Assembly: GCA_002010065.2 (NCBI GenBank)
Contig: MTMD02000006.1
Span: forward strand, 1 to 64,000
DNA length: 64,000 nt
DNA from: Candidatus Pyrohabitans jungbluthii
Lineage (GTDB): Archaea; Hydrothermarchaeota; Hydrothermarchaeia; Hydrothermarchaeales; BMS3B
Direction of reading: 5' to 3'
Position numbers and translations under genes: made by a program. Positions 50,132 to 54,895 of the stretch are shown here, piece after piece. The notes beneath the pieces were generated by a model, which was not told the DNA's origin, did not search any database, and was given only the letters and a program-made list of their open reading frames with translations. Within the stretch, counting starts at the first letter, position 1, and each line of letters starts with the position of its first letter.

Positions 50132-51523
50132 ATGAGCATCTTTGACCTGCTGAAGCCGAAATCTTCGAGAATGGACCTGGCTCTCGCGGAGCTTCTGAAA
50201 GGGGTTGCAAAGGCTGCGGATGATAAAATTTATAATCCCGACTTTGAGCCAGAGGGCGGCTGGGATAAGTGGTGCGCCTGGGCTGCGAAGCAGGGCAAAA
50301 TAGCGAGGATGATTAGAAGCTTAGCTAAGAATGCAATGGCTTTCGACTTCTCTGGCGATGACGACAAGGCGTTGGAATTGGTGCAGAAGATGCGCCGGCG
50401 CACCCACCTTGATCTAATTCTCGTGCTCGCCTTCAAGGACTGGCTTGAATATGGACGCTGCTTCCTGGAAGTGGTGTGGGAGAAGAAGCGCATCGGGAAC
50501 AATGTTGTAGAGGACATCATCAAAATCAAGCGCGTTAACCCGATGACAGTCCGCGTTTTCAGAGACAACGAGGACGATGTGCGTGAGCTCCGGGACTTCC
50601 TGAAGCGTCACTTCCCGAATGTGGACAGGAGCAACATCAAAGAGGGCAGCGGTGACAACATCATAGGCTTCGTGCAGCACTTCAAGAGGGCTGAGGAGGG
50701 CAAGGCGGTATTCTTCAAGCCTGAGGAGCTTATCTTCATCCCGCGCTATCCCGACTACGACGCCCCCGACGGTGTCAGTCTGCTCAGGGAGAACTACGCC
50801 AATATCATGAACAAGCTCGGCACGGAGAAGTACCAGGCGATCATGCTCAAGCGCTTCGTGGACCACAAGCACAAGTTTAAAGTTCCTGAACGTTGGTGGC
50901 ATCGCATTGAGGAACTCCAGAGCAAAATCAAAAACATGTTGAAAGCGGGCGGTGACCTCTGGATCCCCGAGGGCATGGAGGTTGAAATACTCGAGCCGAA
51001 AGGCAATCCCCTAGCGACGATCAAAGCTCAGGAGCATATAGAGGACCAGGTAATCGCCGGCATGGGCTTCAGCGACAGCTTCACCGAGAGCAAGAGCAGC
51101 AACCGCTCTGTTGGTGAGGTGCAGCTCCAGTTCTTTGAACGCGATATTAGACCAGAGCGCTACATCTTCAAGGTCGTCATCGAGGACAGGATCATAATCC
51201 CCTATGTCAGGAAGAAGCTCGGACCCAAAGCGAAGCCACCGGAGATGGTATTCGAAGACCTCACGCCACGCGATGAGGTGCGCTGGGCTGCGGTGATGGC
51301 TTCCTACCTGCCCTACATGACCAAGTCGCAGATCAAGCGCCTCTTCGACGAGCTCGGCTACCCAGTGCCAAAAGAGGAGGAAAAAGAGTTCAGCGCAAAG
51401 GTGGACCTCGCAACTCAGAAGGGCGTGCCAAAGCCCGTGCTGACCGGAAGCGTTGACGTCAGAGAAGAGTTCGCGGAAGAAATCCATCGCCTCCGGAAAG
51501 AGCTCCTGGAGGTCTTCGACTGA
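50132..51523 (+). CDS. Portal protein
   Basis: 463 aa, DUF935/Mu gp29-like portal: forms the dodecameric DNA gate at the capsid vertex. N-terminal helices, WLEYGRCFLEVVWEKKRIG in the middle, the stem-helix region, and a C-terminal clip-like part ending with acidic helices. Position between terL and the MuF-like gene is canonical. Confidence 0.88.
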   Translation: MSIFDLLKPKSSRMDLALAELLKGVAKAADDKIYNPDFEPEGGWDKWCAWAAKQGKIARMIRSLAKNAMAFDFSGDDDKALELVQKMRRRTHLDLILVLAFKDWLEYGRCFLEVVWEKKRIGNNVVEDIIKIKRVNPMTVRVFRDNEDDVRELRDFLKRHFPNVDRSNIKEGSGDNIIGFVQHFKRAEEGKAVFFKPEELIFIPRYPDYDAPDGVSLLRENYANIMNKLGTEKYQAIMLKRFVDHKHKFKVPERWWHRIEELQSKIKNMLKAGGDLWIPEGMEVEILEPKGNPLATIKAQEHIEDQVIAGMGFSDSFTESKSSNRSVGEVQLQFFERDIRPERYIFKVVIEDRIIIPYVRKKLGPKAKPPEMVFEDLTPRDEVRWAAVMASYLPYMTKSQIKRLFDELGYPVPKEEEKEFSAKVDLATQKGVPKPVLTGSVDVREEFAEEIHRLRKELLEVFD

Positions 51524-52798
51524 ATGCAGCTCTACGATTTCCTCAGCAAGGATGAGGAAGATGCGATCCGTGCCATTGAGGAAGCGCTTCTCAGGAAGAC
51601 AGCAGAATCAAGGAAGCGCGCGGTTGAAAAGCTCGCCAAGCTTCTCACCGTCAGCTACTACATCGGCGCAGAGAGGGCGCTCAAAGAAGTTGGCGCTGAC
51701 GTGCGCATCACCAGCTTGGAGATCAGAGCGCTCGAGAAGCTCATAGAGCAGGATGTAGCGCCAGCAATAAAAGAGATGTACGAGTTCCTCGAGCGCGACA
51801 TTAAGAGCGTCATCGAGGAAGGCATCCGGGAGGGACTTACCTACGACGAAATCTCTGCAAGGCTAAAGGAAAGGCTAAGAACAACCTTCGGCGAGGAGAT
51901 TCACTTTGACAGGCGTGGAAAGCTAAGGGAAGAGATCTACATTGACCGCAGAGGCAGGCTCAGAGTCAGGCAGGTTAAAATCACCCGCACAAAGACGCTG
52001 AAGCTTGACGACTACGCCGATCTCCTCGCAAGGACCAACGTAAAGAAAGCCTACGCCCTGGGGCACCGCGAGGGCTACGTCGCCGCTGGCCTGCGAAAGT
52101 GGAGGTATCGCAGCGTAGCAGATGAACGCACCAGGCCGCACCACTTAGCTCTTCACGGCAGAGTATTTGAGGTTGGCACAGCAGAAGAAGAGCTCGCCCT
52201 CCGCGTAATGAGCGAGCCCAACTGTAGATGCAGGCCCTCGCCATACTTCGACGATCCCAAGCTTGACACGCCTCAAGAGGTTTTCGAGCAGGAGAAGAAA
52301 AAATGGGCCCAGGAATGGCAGAGAGAGAAGGGTCTCGATTCTCTTGGGAAGTATCTAGAACCATTCGACAGAAAAGGCTTAGCACCTCCTTCCTATGATG
52401 AGCAGCTTAACTACCTCATAGAGAGGTTTAAGAAAAGCGAAGACATGCGCACCCTCCTTTCCATTACCGGGGAAAGCCCGCAAGCAAAAGCTAAAGAGAT
52501 CCTTGGAATCTCTCTCAGGCACTCCACATTTCACGGTACCGCTTCATCATACAGGCACATGGTGCAGGATGGGAGGAGGTACTCCCTGTCAGATGTTTTC
52601 AGCATAAAAAAGAGCCCGGAATGGGTAAGACGCGATCCTGATACCGGAGAATTTTTATTGCATGGAAAATCTAAAATATATCAGCGCCCAGTTTATATAA
52701 TATTGACACCTGACAGAAAAATTAAAACTTCATTTGTCATTACAAAAAGGAAAGAAGTTGAGAAGCTTAAGATGAGATTTAAAGAGGAGTTGAAATGA
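51524..52798 (+). CDS. MuF-like head morphogenesis protein with a candidate C-terminal toxin domain
   Basis: 424 aa. Starts right after the portal stop. Residues 1 to about 250 are a Mu F/SPP1 gp7 minor head protein, with the diagnostic VADERTRPHHLALHGRVF at about 190-210 and PNCRCRP at about 231-237. After a linker, residues about 325-424 form a separate domain (HSTFHGTASSYRHMV ... RPVYIILTPDRKIKTSF) whose DNA is noticeably AT-rich. Toxin domains of the phage barnase/EndoU/colicin/RelE-like group occur in this position in bacterial MuF proteins. The domain call is tentative. A small gene overlaps its end. Confidence 0.8.
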   Translation: MQLYDFLSKDEEDAIRAIEEALLRKTAESRKRAVEKLAKLLTVSYYIGAERALKEVGADVRITSLEIRALEKLIEQDVAPAIKEMYEFLERDIKSVIEEGIREGLTYDEISARLKERLRTTFGEEIHFDRRGKLREEIYIDRRGRLRVRQVKITRTKTLKLDDYADLLARTNVKKAYALGHREGYVAAGLRKWRYRSVADERTRPHHLALHGRVFEVGTAEEELALRVMSEPNCRCRPSPYFDDPKLDTPQEVFEQEKKKWAQEWQREKGLDSLGKYLEPFDRKGLAPPSYDEQLNYLIERFKKSEDMRTLLSITGESPQAKAKEILGISLRHSTFHGTASSYRHMVQDGRRYSLSDVFSIKKSPEWVRRDPDTGEFLLHGKSKIYQRPVYIILTPDRKIKTSFVITKRKEVEKLKMRFKEELK

Positions 52799-53067
52799 AG
52801 AGGCTCCGAATAAGCTACGGGGACGAGCTGCTCAAAAATCCAGAGAAACGACCTGCAGAAGGCAAAATTAGAGCAGCGTACGTAAACAACAGAACAGGGT
52901 TAGTCTTAGGGAGGGGCGACATTGAGGTGGAGATCATAAGGGAGAACGGCGCTGATTATATCACCCTTCCCGAGGAGGTATACAGAGAATTGAAACTCAC
53001 AGATTACGACATGGACTGGTGCTCTGTCTATCTGAGGGAGGATGGTATCTTAGTAGAGCTTTTCTAG
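52795..53067 (+). CDS. Candidate immunity protein for the MuF C-terminal domain
   Basis: 90 aa, ATGA overlap with the MuF-like gene. Contains two beta-rich blocks (YVNNRTGLVLGRGDIEVEII, WCSVYLREDGILVELF) and an acidic middle. The size, acidic character and coupling downstream of a putative toxin suit an immunity protein. No database family is recognised. Confidence 0.5.
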   Translation: MKRLRISYGDELLKNPEKRPAEGKIRAAYVNNRTGLVLGRGDIEVEIIRENGADYITLPEEVYRELKLTDYDMDWCSVYLREDGILVELF

Positions 53068-53086: not shown

Positions 53087-53479
53087 ATGGATATTAACAT
53101 AAAGGATTTGACTTCTCGTAATTTGGTCAATCATTTTGTAATTGGCTATTTCGCTCTTTATGTAATCCTTGGCGATCAGTTTATTAATTATAAATTATTG
53201 AAGCAGATAGTCTTGGCGATTGTTGCAAGCTACTTGTTGTTTATTCCCGCAAGATTAATCGTCCGCATTCGTTGGGGAAGATGGGAAGAAAATCAAGAGG
53301 CGTACACGTACTATCACTTTAGAATATTCGCGGTTCTTCTCTCTCTTACTATAATCAAATTTATTGATATCATGAGAGGACTATGGCCGTGGTACAAACT
53401 GATTTTAGTTTGGTTGTTATCTTTTACAGCAGACTGGTTAACATGGTGGCTTTACAGAAAAGATACCACCGACTGCTAA
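53087..53479 (+). CDS. Membrane protein, AT-rich cargo
   Basis: 130 aa with three to four hydrophobic helices (about 20-35, 43-62, 80-95, 100-122) and tryptophan-rich loops. GGGGGTAG ribosome site. AT-rich like the end of the MuF gene; it lies between that pair and late promoter element 3. Could be part of the toxin/immunity or exclusion module. Confidence 0.55.
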   Translation: MDINIKDLTSRNLVNHFVIGYFALYVILGDQFINYKLLKQIVLAIVASYLLFIPARLIVRIRWGRWEENQEAYTYYHFRIFAVLLSLTIIKFIDIMRGLWPWYKLILVWLLSFTADWLTWWLYRKDTTDC

Positions 53480-53495
53480 ATTCTACAACCACTAT

Positions 53496-53512
53496 CTGAC
53501 TTTCCTTTTTAA
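53496..53512 (+). promoter_or_regulatory. Late promoter element 3 (protease/capsid)
   Basis: CTGACTTTCCTTTTTAA, 25 nt before the prohead protease ATG, again consistent with a leaderless transcript. It restarts transcription after the AT-rich cargo. Confidence 0.75.
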
Positions 53513-53536
53513 GCTACTTCTCCTCAGCCTTTATTC

Positions 53537-54895
53537 ATGAGCGACGAGGTTACAGTAGACTTCACTGTAAGGGTTGCCGATTGCTTGGGCTTTTGTGCAG
53601 AGAAAGGCGACTTCGTCCCAGTGGTTGACCTGAAGAACGAGGACACCTCGAGGGGACTAAAGCGCAGGATCATCGCTGTCACCGAAGGCACACACAACGG
53701 CATACAGTTCCGGGCTAATGAAATTGAGGCGATGGTCCGGCGTGCCATTGAGGTGAAAGAGCAGGAGAATAGGAAGTACTTCAAGGTGCCTCTTGTTCTG
53801 GACCACAGCGATAGCTTCCTGGACAAAGTCGGAGCCACCTACAACCTCGAGTTCGGCAAGGACCCTGAGAAGGGGCTGCAGGCGGCAATAGCAGACGTGG
53901 AGTTCTGGAACACCACGCCCATGCTCAGAGAGGTTGCAGAGCGCGTGAAGCTAGACCCTGAGAACACCTTCTTCTCCGTCAGGGTGAGGGGCAGAATAGA
54001 GCAGGACGCAGAAGGGGAGTACCTTGCTGACATGACCCTGGTGCACATCGCCGTGGTAAACGAGCCCGCTGATCCCAATGCCAGGCTGATCTCCAATTCC
54101 AGAGGTGCCGATATTTCCCGGGAAATATTCGACTTTGGCGTGGTGCCGAGCAACCCGCCAAACTACCGCAAGGCGAGCGAGGACACACCCTGGGAAAAGC
54201 CTCGCCTTGAGGACTTCACCAGCAAGCGTTGGGATGAGCTGAGCGATGCGGAGAAGCGCAGAATAGCCCAGCACTTCGCTTGGGCTCCGAAGATGCCGCC
54301 CAACGCATTCACAGACCTCAAGTTGCCGCATCACCGCCCTAGCGACGGCGCCGTGGTGTGGAACGGTGTTCGCGCAGCAATGGCAGCACTCATGGGCGCC
54401 CGTGGTGGCGTTGACATTCCCGCGGCAGATAAGCGCAAGGTGTACAACCATCTCGCAGCTCACTACAGAGAATTCGAAAAAGAGCCTCCAGAGGCAAACT
54501 TCGCCAAATCTGACTTTGCTTTAAATACAGAAGGCTCGGAACTCAACAACAAAGGAGGTCTAAGCATGGAAGAAATAGAGAAAATCAAGACAGACCTCAA
54601 GAAAGAGTACGAGCAGAAGCTCGAGGAGGTCAAGCAGGAGTTCGCAGCGAAGATCAAGAAAATCGAAGAGCTGACCGAGCTCCGCGCGGAGATCATCGCG
54701 ATTTACCCTGAGGTTGACAGGGATTTCCTGAAGTCGCTCAACAGGGAGCAGCTGGAGAAGTACAAGGCGGACCTCAAGAAGCGCATGGTGGAAACCCAGA
54801 GCACCGAGAAGAGCAGGGACAACGCAGCCAAAGCCGAGGACCCGTTTGAGCTTGCCGAGAAGTACTTCGGCCCGGTTGAAGTGGGGGTGAGCTAA
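53537..54895 (+). CDS. Prohead protease fused to scaffold
   Basis: 452 aa. Protease domain (about 1-200): catalytic histidine in VLDHSDSFLDKVG and serine in TFFSVRVRGR. A middle helical block (about 225-320) with LSDAEKRRIAQHFAWAP and KVYNHLAAHYREFEKEPPE is common in phage protease-scaffold proteins. From about residue 343 the C-terminus is a charged coiled coil (scaffold). Cleaves the scaffold during capsid maturation. No own ribosome site: probably leaderless. Confidence 0.85.
   Translation: MSDEVTVDFTVRVADCLGFCAEKGDFVPVVDLKNEDTSRGLKRRIIAVTEGTHNGIQFRANEIEAMVRRAIEVKEQENRKYFKVPLVLDHSDSFLDKVGATYNLEFGKDPEKGLQAAIADVEFWNTTPMLREVAERVKLDPENTFFSVRVRGRIEQDAEGEYLADMTLVHIAVVNEPADPNARLISNSRGADISREIFDFGVVPSNPPNYRKASEDTPWEKPRLEDFTSKRWDELSDAEKRRIAQHFAWAPKMPPNAFTDLKLPHHRPSDGAVVWNGVRAAMAALMGARGGVDIPAADKRKVYNHLAAHYREFEKEPPEANFAKSDFALNTEGSELNNKGGLSMEEIEKIKTDLKKEYEQKLEEVKQEFAAKIKKIEELTELRAEIIAIYPEVDRDFLKSLNREQLEKYKADLKKRMVETQSTEKSRDNAAKAEDPFELAEKYFGPVEVGVS
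54566..54895 (+). CDS. Nested in-frame scaffold protein
   Basis: ATG 54566 lies within the protease frame and is preceded by a strong AAAGGAGGT at 54551-54559. It would give a 109-aa scaffold alone (MEEIEKIKTDLKKEYEQKL ...), as in the lambda C/Nu3 arrangement. The strength of an internal ribosome site within a leaderless gene is the main evidence. Confidence 0.65.
   Translation: MEEIEKIKTDLKKEYEQKLEEVKQEFAAKIKKIEELTELRAEIIAIYPEVDRDFLKSLNREQLEKYKADLKKRMVETQSTEKSRDNAAKAEDPFELAEKYFGPVEVGVS

What the first reader, a model, noticed from the sequence alone, without database searches (positions are those of the whole stretch)
51524..53067. Archaeal MuF-type candidate toxin with a coupled immunity gene
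The MuF-like head protein continues past the PNCRCRP motif (about residue 237) into a separate C-terminal domain of about 100 residues. That DNA is AT-rich relative to the rest of the gene. An unrelated 90-aa acidic gene overlaps its stop by 4 nt. In bacterial phages, MuF proteins with variable C-terminal nuclease toxins and downstream immunity genes are established. An equivalent in a tailed archaeal virus would be new to my knowledge.
Basis: partly seen in the sequence, partly recalled or inferred. Interest (0 to 1): 0.8.

Follow-up and report, generated by a model that had tools for sequence, protein, structure and literature searches.

The report
Swappable virus toxin with antidote gene
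A virus integrated in an archaeal genome carries a head protein whose tail end looks like an RNA-cutting toxin, followed by a small gene that looks like its antidote; related archaeal viruses exchange this pair as one unit, and some archaeal cells keep the antidote gene alone in their chromosomes.

Summary
MuF (51524-52798, 424 aa, PF04233) carries a C-terminal domain (residues ~286-424), and a 90-aa gene (52795-53067) overlaps its stop by 4 nt. Neither the domain nor the 90-aa protein matches Pfam.

Both are members of families shared by archaeal tailed viruses. In 12 of 12 loci with the C-terminal domain the small-gene family lies directly downstream; in 0 of 15 other MuF loci does it. In two contigs 97-98% identical on both sides, only ~0.7 kb differs: exactly the MuF C-terminus plus the downstream gene, where a JAMM-motif domain with an unrelated small gene replaces the pair. 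Other relatives carry an HEXXH domain or no toxin and no small gene. Stand-alone copies of the small gene sit in archaeal chromosomes, two beside CRISPR arrays.

An 8-sequence AlphaFold model (pLDDT 80) places His337 and Thr402 as in BECR RNases, but Foldseek gives no significant match. Best reading: an archaeal MuF polymorphic toxin-immunity cassette, probably an RNase. The concept is not new: Zhang et al. 2012 list MuF toxins in Euryarchaeota, and virus vir080 has a MuF-ART fusion. The two protein families, the mapped cassette exchange and the orphan immunity genes appear new. Toxicity is untested.

The parts
50132..51523 (+). Mu-type portal protein gene, directly upstream
   Evidence: PF06074 E=2.1e-11; MuF genes typically follow portal genes (PMC5576092)
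51524..52378 (+). MuF core, residues 1-285 (PF04233 at 92-237), virion/packaging part
   Evidence: Pfam, PHROGs, NCBIfam TIGR01641; 49-57% identical to cores in Archaeoglobi proviruses and IMG/VR contigs
52379..52798 (+). Candidate toxin domain, residues 286-424, BECR-like (H337, K362, D397, T402)
   Evidence: no Pfam or PDB sequence match; family of 12 loci; model pLDDT 80
52795..53067 (+). Candidate immunity gene, 90 aa, ATGA overlap with MuF
   Evidence: profile built without the window finds it at E=2.8e-4, best of 1141 frames; same family downstream in 12/12 toxin loci and 0/15 others
53087..53479 (+). 130-aa hydrophobic ORF, probably a passenger of the same exchange cassette
   Evidence: GC 0.364; lies left of the conserved right boundary, as does a 92-aa hydrophobic gene in toxinless L053; no family match
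53494..53513 (+). Conserved right edge of the cassette, probably the promoter of the next gene
   Evidence: TCTGACTTTCCTTTTTAAG; relatives have CTGACTTTTCTTTATATT at the point where nucleotide similarity resumes
53537..54895 (+). Next head gene (prohead protease/scaffold position), conserved beyond the cassette
   Evidence: homologous gene follows the cassette in all relatives read

Best explanation
The locus is a polymorphic toxin-immunity cassette carried on the MuF head protein of an archaeal tailed provirus with a contractile tail. Inferred mechanism: the MuF core takes the toxin domain into the capsid with the DNA; on infection it enters the recipient cell, where the BECR-like C-terminal domain cuts RNA, with H337 and T402 as candidate catalytic residues; the translationally coupled 90-aa protein binds and blocks it during virion assembly and protects the provirus-bearing cell. 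Shown here: domain architecture, 4-nt overlap, strict association of the domain with one small-gene family, replacement of the pair as a unit in relatives, predicted fold, and chromosomal stand-alone copies of the small gene. Inferred: packaging, injection, RNase activity, toxicity, neutralisation.
For: Small-gene family downstream in 12/12 loci with this domain and 0/15 other MuF loci. L090 and L091 are 96.9% and 97.9% identical on the two sides, with an unrelated 705 / 740 nt between; the block starts after ...ATKALDEI in MuF and ends 1-2 nt past the stop of the downstream gene in both. L049/L052 and L052/L053 show similarity breaks at corresponding places; L053 has a MuF without the domain and without the small gene. 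Protein identities fall together: L041/L052 core 76, toxin 28, small protein 27%; window/L041 57/21/25%; L049/L041 83/77/79%; Mantel p=0.0002. HEXXH and JAMM-motif alternatives carry their own small genes. Stand-alone copies in chromosomes: G021 (2), G444, G028 (2 tandem), G411 (2 tandem), G499; two next to CRISPR arrays. Model: helix plus four-strand fold, H337 at the start of the fourth helix, T402 in strand 4, the BECR configuration of PMC5512222.
Against: No Pfam toxin or immunity family matches. Foldseek gives no match below E=1e-3; colicin D and CDI-toxin matches are weak. The window allele lacks the colicin D motifs Hxx[ED] and [TS]xxK that the A. profundus allele has, so it may be altered or inactive. 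Trees of core and toxin do not conflict, and a partial test within core clades is not significant (p=0.10), so differences among BECR-like alleles may be fast divergence rather than exchange. No wet evidence.
Confidence: 0.74

Rival explanations
1. The C-terminal domain is a catalytically dead or RNA-binding PBECR-type virion domain, as proposed for phage Mu gp30; the small gene is a chaperone or assembly partner.
For: PMC5512222 describes an inactive PBECR in Mu MuF. The window allele departs from the colicin D motifs HxxD and TxxK. No significant toxin match.
Against: The domain and partner are absent or replaced by unrelated enzyme-motif domains in relatives with a homologous core; a required structural domain would be kept. 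The partner exists without MuF in cellular chromosomes.
Confidence: 0.13
2. The pair is a type II toxin-antitoxin (addiction) module fused to MuF that acts inside the carrier cell and is not delivered by virions.
For: Small protein size, coupled gene order, BECR folds include RelE toxins, and a weak AbrB/MazE-like stretch in the small protein (hhalign probability 67%).
Against: In the loci read the toxin is the C-terminus of a head protein in a portal-MuF-protease head module, and gene order is toxin first. No free-standing intact toxin was found in 394 genomes; the other hits are remnants.
Confidence: 0.1
3. The small gene is an unrelated virus gene whose position is coincidental.
For: Small overlapping ORFs are common in virus head modules (general knowledge).
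Against: 12/12 against 0/15 association and co-replacement at nucleotide precision.
Confidence: 0.03

Closest known systems
MuF polymorphic toxins of temperate phages (Jamet et al. 2017, PMC5576092; Zhang et al. 2012, PMC3482391)
   Same: MuF domain behind a portal gene, variable C-terminal enzyme domain, short downstream ORF, association with integrated tailed viruses.
   Different: Host is an archaeon (the word archaea does not occur in Jamet et al.; Zhang lists Euryarchaeota in a table). Toxin and immunity families are not in Pfam. Exchange boundaries mapped to the nucleotide; stand-alone immunity genes in cellular chromosomes.
PBECR / BECR RNase domains (Iyer et al. 2017, PMC5512222), colicin D
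   Same: Predicted helix plus four-strand core with His in a helix and Thr in strand 4; MuF fusions exist. The A. profundus allele has HGID and TVHK, matching Tox-ColD Hxx[ED] and [TS]xxK.
   Different: No profile or significant fold match; the window allele has HGTA and TSFV in those places.
MuF-ADP-ribosyltransferase of Methanobacteriales virus vir080 (BK063677)
   Same: Tailed archaeal virus, MuF with a C-terminal toxin-type enzyme domain (PF03496).
   Different: Different enzyme; annotated as head maturation protease; no member of this small-gene family nearby.
Imm64 / ImmD immunity proteins of Tox-ColD
   Same: Zhang et al. list Imm64 with Tox-ColD in Euryarchaea.
   Different: No Imm family matches the small protein or its relatives in Pfam.

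Membership tests
MuF polymorphic toxin system | MuF domain at the N-terminal side | tested here: met
   PF04233 E=8.5e-16, TIGR01641
MuF polymorphic toxin system | gene directly downstream of the portal gene | tested here: met
   portal 50132-51523, MuF from 51524
MuF polymorphic toxin system | variable C-terminal domain swapped among relatives | tested here: met
MuF polymorphic toxin system | short downstream ORF tied to presence of the toxin | tested here: met
   12/12 against 0/15
MuF polymorphic toxin system | C-terminus is a known toxin domain | tested here: inconclusive
   no Pfam match; BECR-like model
MuF polymorphic toxin system | temperate virus | tested here: inconclusive
   viral genes share a contig with cellular genes; integrase and att sites were not mapped
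MuF polymorphic toxin system | toxicity neutralised by the downstream protein | not testable with these tools
   needs expression tests
BECR/PBECR RNase | N-terminal helix plus four- or five-strand core | tested here: met
   8-sequence model, pLDDT 80.1, pTM 0.64
BECR/PBECR RNase | His in helix and Ser/Thr in strand 4 | tested here: met
   H337 and T402; T402 invariant in 11 sequences, the His column shifts in L049/L041
BECR/PBECR RNase | significant profile or structure match to a known member | tested here: not met
   no E<=1e-3 in PDB or BFVD; no Pfam match
Colicin D | Hxx[ED] and [TS]xxK | tested here: not met
   window HGTA, TSFV; A. profundus relative HGID, TVHK
MazE/AbrB antitoxin (small protein) | PF04014 match | tested here: not met
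   no Pfam match; hhalign probability 67% over 27 columns only

The most novel reading that the evidence does not exclude
Tailed proviruses of several archaeal lineages run a polymorphic toxin system in which new RNase-like, JAMM-motif and HEXXH cassettes, each with its own small partner gene, are exchanged at fixed points of the MuF gene; archaeal cells keep stand-alone immunity genes, some beside CRISPR arrays, as defence against these virion-borne toxins.
Probability: 0.4. Interest if true: 0.78.

Novelty: new variant of a known kind. Interest (0 to 1): 0.66.

Why it matters
Virion-borne polymorphic toxins are described almost only from bacteria. Here a matched set of archaeal alleles, including one in what appears to be the cultivated Archaeoglobus profundus, an exact exchange cassette and chromosomal stand-alone immunity genes make two questions directly testable: whether archaeal viruses inject toxins from their heads, and whether archaea use captured immunity genes as antiviral defence.

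Tried and rejected
Pfam, PDB-sequence, PHROGs and NCBIfam searches of the domain and small protein alone gave nothing usable. tblastn against phage records found only the MuF core. The single-sequence fold had pLDDT 55 and was not used. Top Foldseek hits (OsmE, beta-propeller lipoproteins, NHL repeats) are low-coverage or poorly superposed and were judged generic sheet matches. Tree conflict between core and toxin was looked for and not found: L028 and L046 group in all three trees, so conflict is not used as an argument. A partial correlation of toxin and small-protein identity within core clades was not significant (p=0.10). IMG/VR locus L003 is a relative in the MuF core only. The weak toxin hits in G206, G398 and G415 were treated as chance or remnants.

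Full report
What is there. The window is the first 64 kb of contig C6 of a 1.99-Mb archaeal genome (archaeal 16S over the full model; archaellum ArlJ and replication factor A). Its phylum holds only 23 species in the collection used. From about 48 to 60 kb runs a head-tail module: TerL, Mu-type portal, MuF, head genes, major capsid protein, connectors and a tail sheath, so the virus is a myovirus-like provirus. A 32.9-kb IMG/VR contig carries the same MuF at 100% identity. MuF is 424 aa with PF04233 at residues 92-237. A 90-aa ORF starts in the ATGA that ends MuF.

The domain is part of a family. Searches of archaeal genomes and IMG/VR with the MuF and with the C-terminal part found the same C-terminal domain in G021 (same phylum), in G334 (chromosome 1,560,622 bases, which from my own knowledge is Archaeoglobus profundus; the same MuF is in IMG/VR record 646311906), in further genomes of the class of G334, and in IMG/VR contigs. 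Eleven domain sequences align over ~135 residues; K362, D397 and T402 of the window protein are invariant. In every one of these loci a gene of 84-106 aa overlaps the MuF stop.

The small genes are one family too. A profile built from the other ten small proteins, without the window's, ranks the 90-aa ORF first of 1141 window frames (E=2.8e-4, next 2.4). With the full profile, all 12 loci that have the domain have the gene next to it, and none of 15 other MuF loci has it (two of the 15 are copies of one allele). This is the central result: the small gene follows the domain, not the MuF core.

Exchange as a unit. Contigs L090 (G418) and L091 (G416) match at 96.9% over 453 nt and 97.9% over 3878 nt. 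Between lie 705 and 740 nt without similarity. The block begins after ...WATKALDEI in MuF and ends one to two bases beyond the stop of the downstream gene in both contigs. One has the BECR-like domain and its 90-aa partner; the other has a domain with a JAMM-like HTHP...SPxD motif and an unrelated 62-aa gene. L049 against L052 and L052 against L053 break at corresponding places; L053 has a MuF that stops after ...KKARYLKKLL and lacks the small gene, with only a 92-aa hydrophobic gene in the slot. Similarity resumes at CTGACTTTTCTTTATATT, about 35 nt before the next gene, probably its promoter. The window has TCTGACTTTCCTTTTTAAG at 53494-53513, so its own cassette probably runs from about 52.3 kb to 53.49 kb and includes the 130-aa hydrophobic ORF. 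GC falls to 0.416 over this stretch, against 0.55 on both sides.

How far the exchange argument reaches. Toxin and small-protein identities fall together (Mantel p=0.0002), but the partial test within core clades is not significant (p=0.10) and trees of core, toxin and small protein do not clearly conflict. Replacement is therefore shown for BECR-like against JAMM-motif and for presence against absence. Among BECR-like alleles, rapid divergence of the pair is an equally good reading.

Other alleles. Four Archaeoglobi genomes and an IMG/VR contig pair carry MuF proteins of 501-517 aa whose C-terminus has an HEYGHH motif and whose next gene is 107-116 aa. G444 carries a JAMM-motif version with a 54-aa overlapping gene. 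These are motif-level statements; Pfam does not match the domains. A MuF-ADP-ribosyltransferase is present in the methanogen virus vir080.

Stand-alone small genes. Members of the small-gene family without a toxin lie in chromosomes: two in G021, one of them of the subtype that goes with the L028/L046 toxins; one in G444, closest to the window's (38% over 60 residues); tandem pairs in G028 and G411; one in G499. In G028 and G499 a CRISPR-like repeat array follows within about 1 kb. Stand-alone immunity genes of this kind are familiar from bacterial polymorphic toxin systems (established knowledge) and are hard to explain if the gene were a virion assembly factor.

Fold and likely activity. An eight-sequence alignment gave a model with pLDDT 80.1 and pTM 0.64: helices, a four-stranded sheet and a C-terminal helix. 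H337 begins the fourth helix and T402 lies in the last strand, the arrangement described for BECR RNases, a helix histidine plus a Ser/Thr in strand 4 (PMC5512222). Foldseek found nothing at E<=1e-3; compact-domain matches include a CDI toxin (8ey4, TM 0.50 on the target), colicin D (1v74, 0.35) and a phage protein named colicin D (0.55). The A. profundus allele has HGID and TVHK, which fit the Tox-ColD signature Hxx[ED] and [TS]xxK of PMC3482391; the window allele has HGTA and TSFV and does not. I therefore call it BECR-like, not a colicin D, and leave open that this allele is inactive.

What it most likely does. Virion-borne MuF toxins are proposed to enter the cell with the phage DNA (PMC5512222, PMC5576092). 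By the same logic this domain would enter the next archaeal host and cut RNA, while the coupled small protein protects the producing cell and its lysogenic descendants. Packaging, entry, RNase action and neutralisation are inference.

What is known. Zhang et al. 2012 list MuF delivery in Euryarchaeota and Tox-ColD with Imm64 in Euryarchaea, so archaeal MuF toxins as a concept are not new. Jamet et al. 2017 analyse bacteria and do not mention archaea. A 2024 study of 38 archaeal tailed proviruses does not mention MuF. I found no paper that describes these families, the exchange cassette or the chromosomal immunity genes; the library holds open-licence papers only.

Noticed in passing
L044 (G397:C42) 99-1505: A MuF gene of an Archaeoglobi provirus is interrupted by an intein-like insertion at the Cys of its PNC-RC motif.
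   Followed up: no
L039 (G425:C15) and L040 (G396:C48): Small proteins (133-144 aa) with a ribbon-helix-helix-like N-terminus joined to only the Cys/His part of a MuF domain, in genomes that also carry a full MuF.
   Followed up: no
L090, L091: Both 5-kb contigs hold two different MuF modules in a row (MuF2 + cassette, a truncated protease gene, a partial portal, MuF1 + cassette), so the head region is a recombinant or decayed provirus.
   Followed up: partly
L082 3238-5250; L089 2740-6001: Stand-alone immunity-family genes lie next to CRISPR-like arrays (11-12 repeats at 67-68 nt spacing; 39 copies at 61 nt spacing).
   Followed up: partly
L031, L032, L033, L035, L047: MuF C-termini with an HEYGHH zinc-peptidase-like motif followed by a 107-116-aa gene: a second candidate toxin-immunity type.
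   Followed up: partly
window 53087-53479; L053 1432-1710: Hydrophobic 92-130-aa genes of unknown role sit inside the exchange cassette; the toxinless allele carries only this gene.
   Followed up: no
L014 (vir080, BK063677): Protein annotated as head maturation protease is a MuF-ADP-ribosyltransferase fusion.
   Followed up: partly
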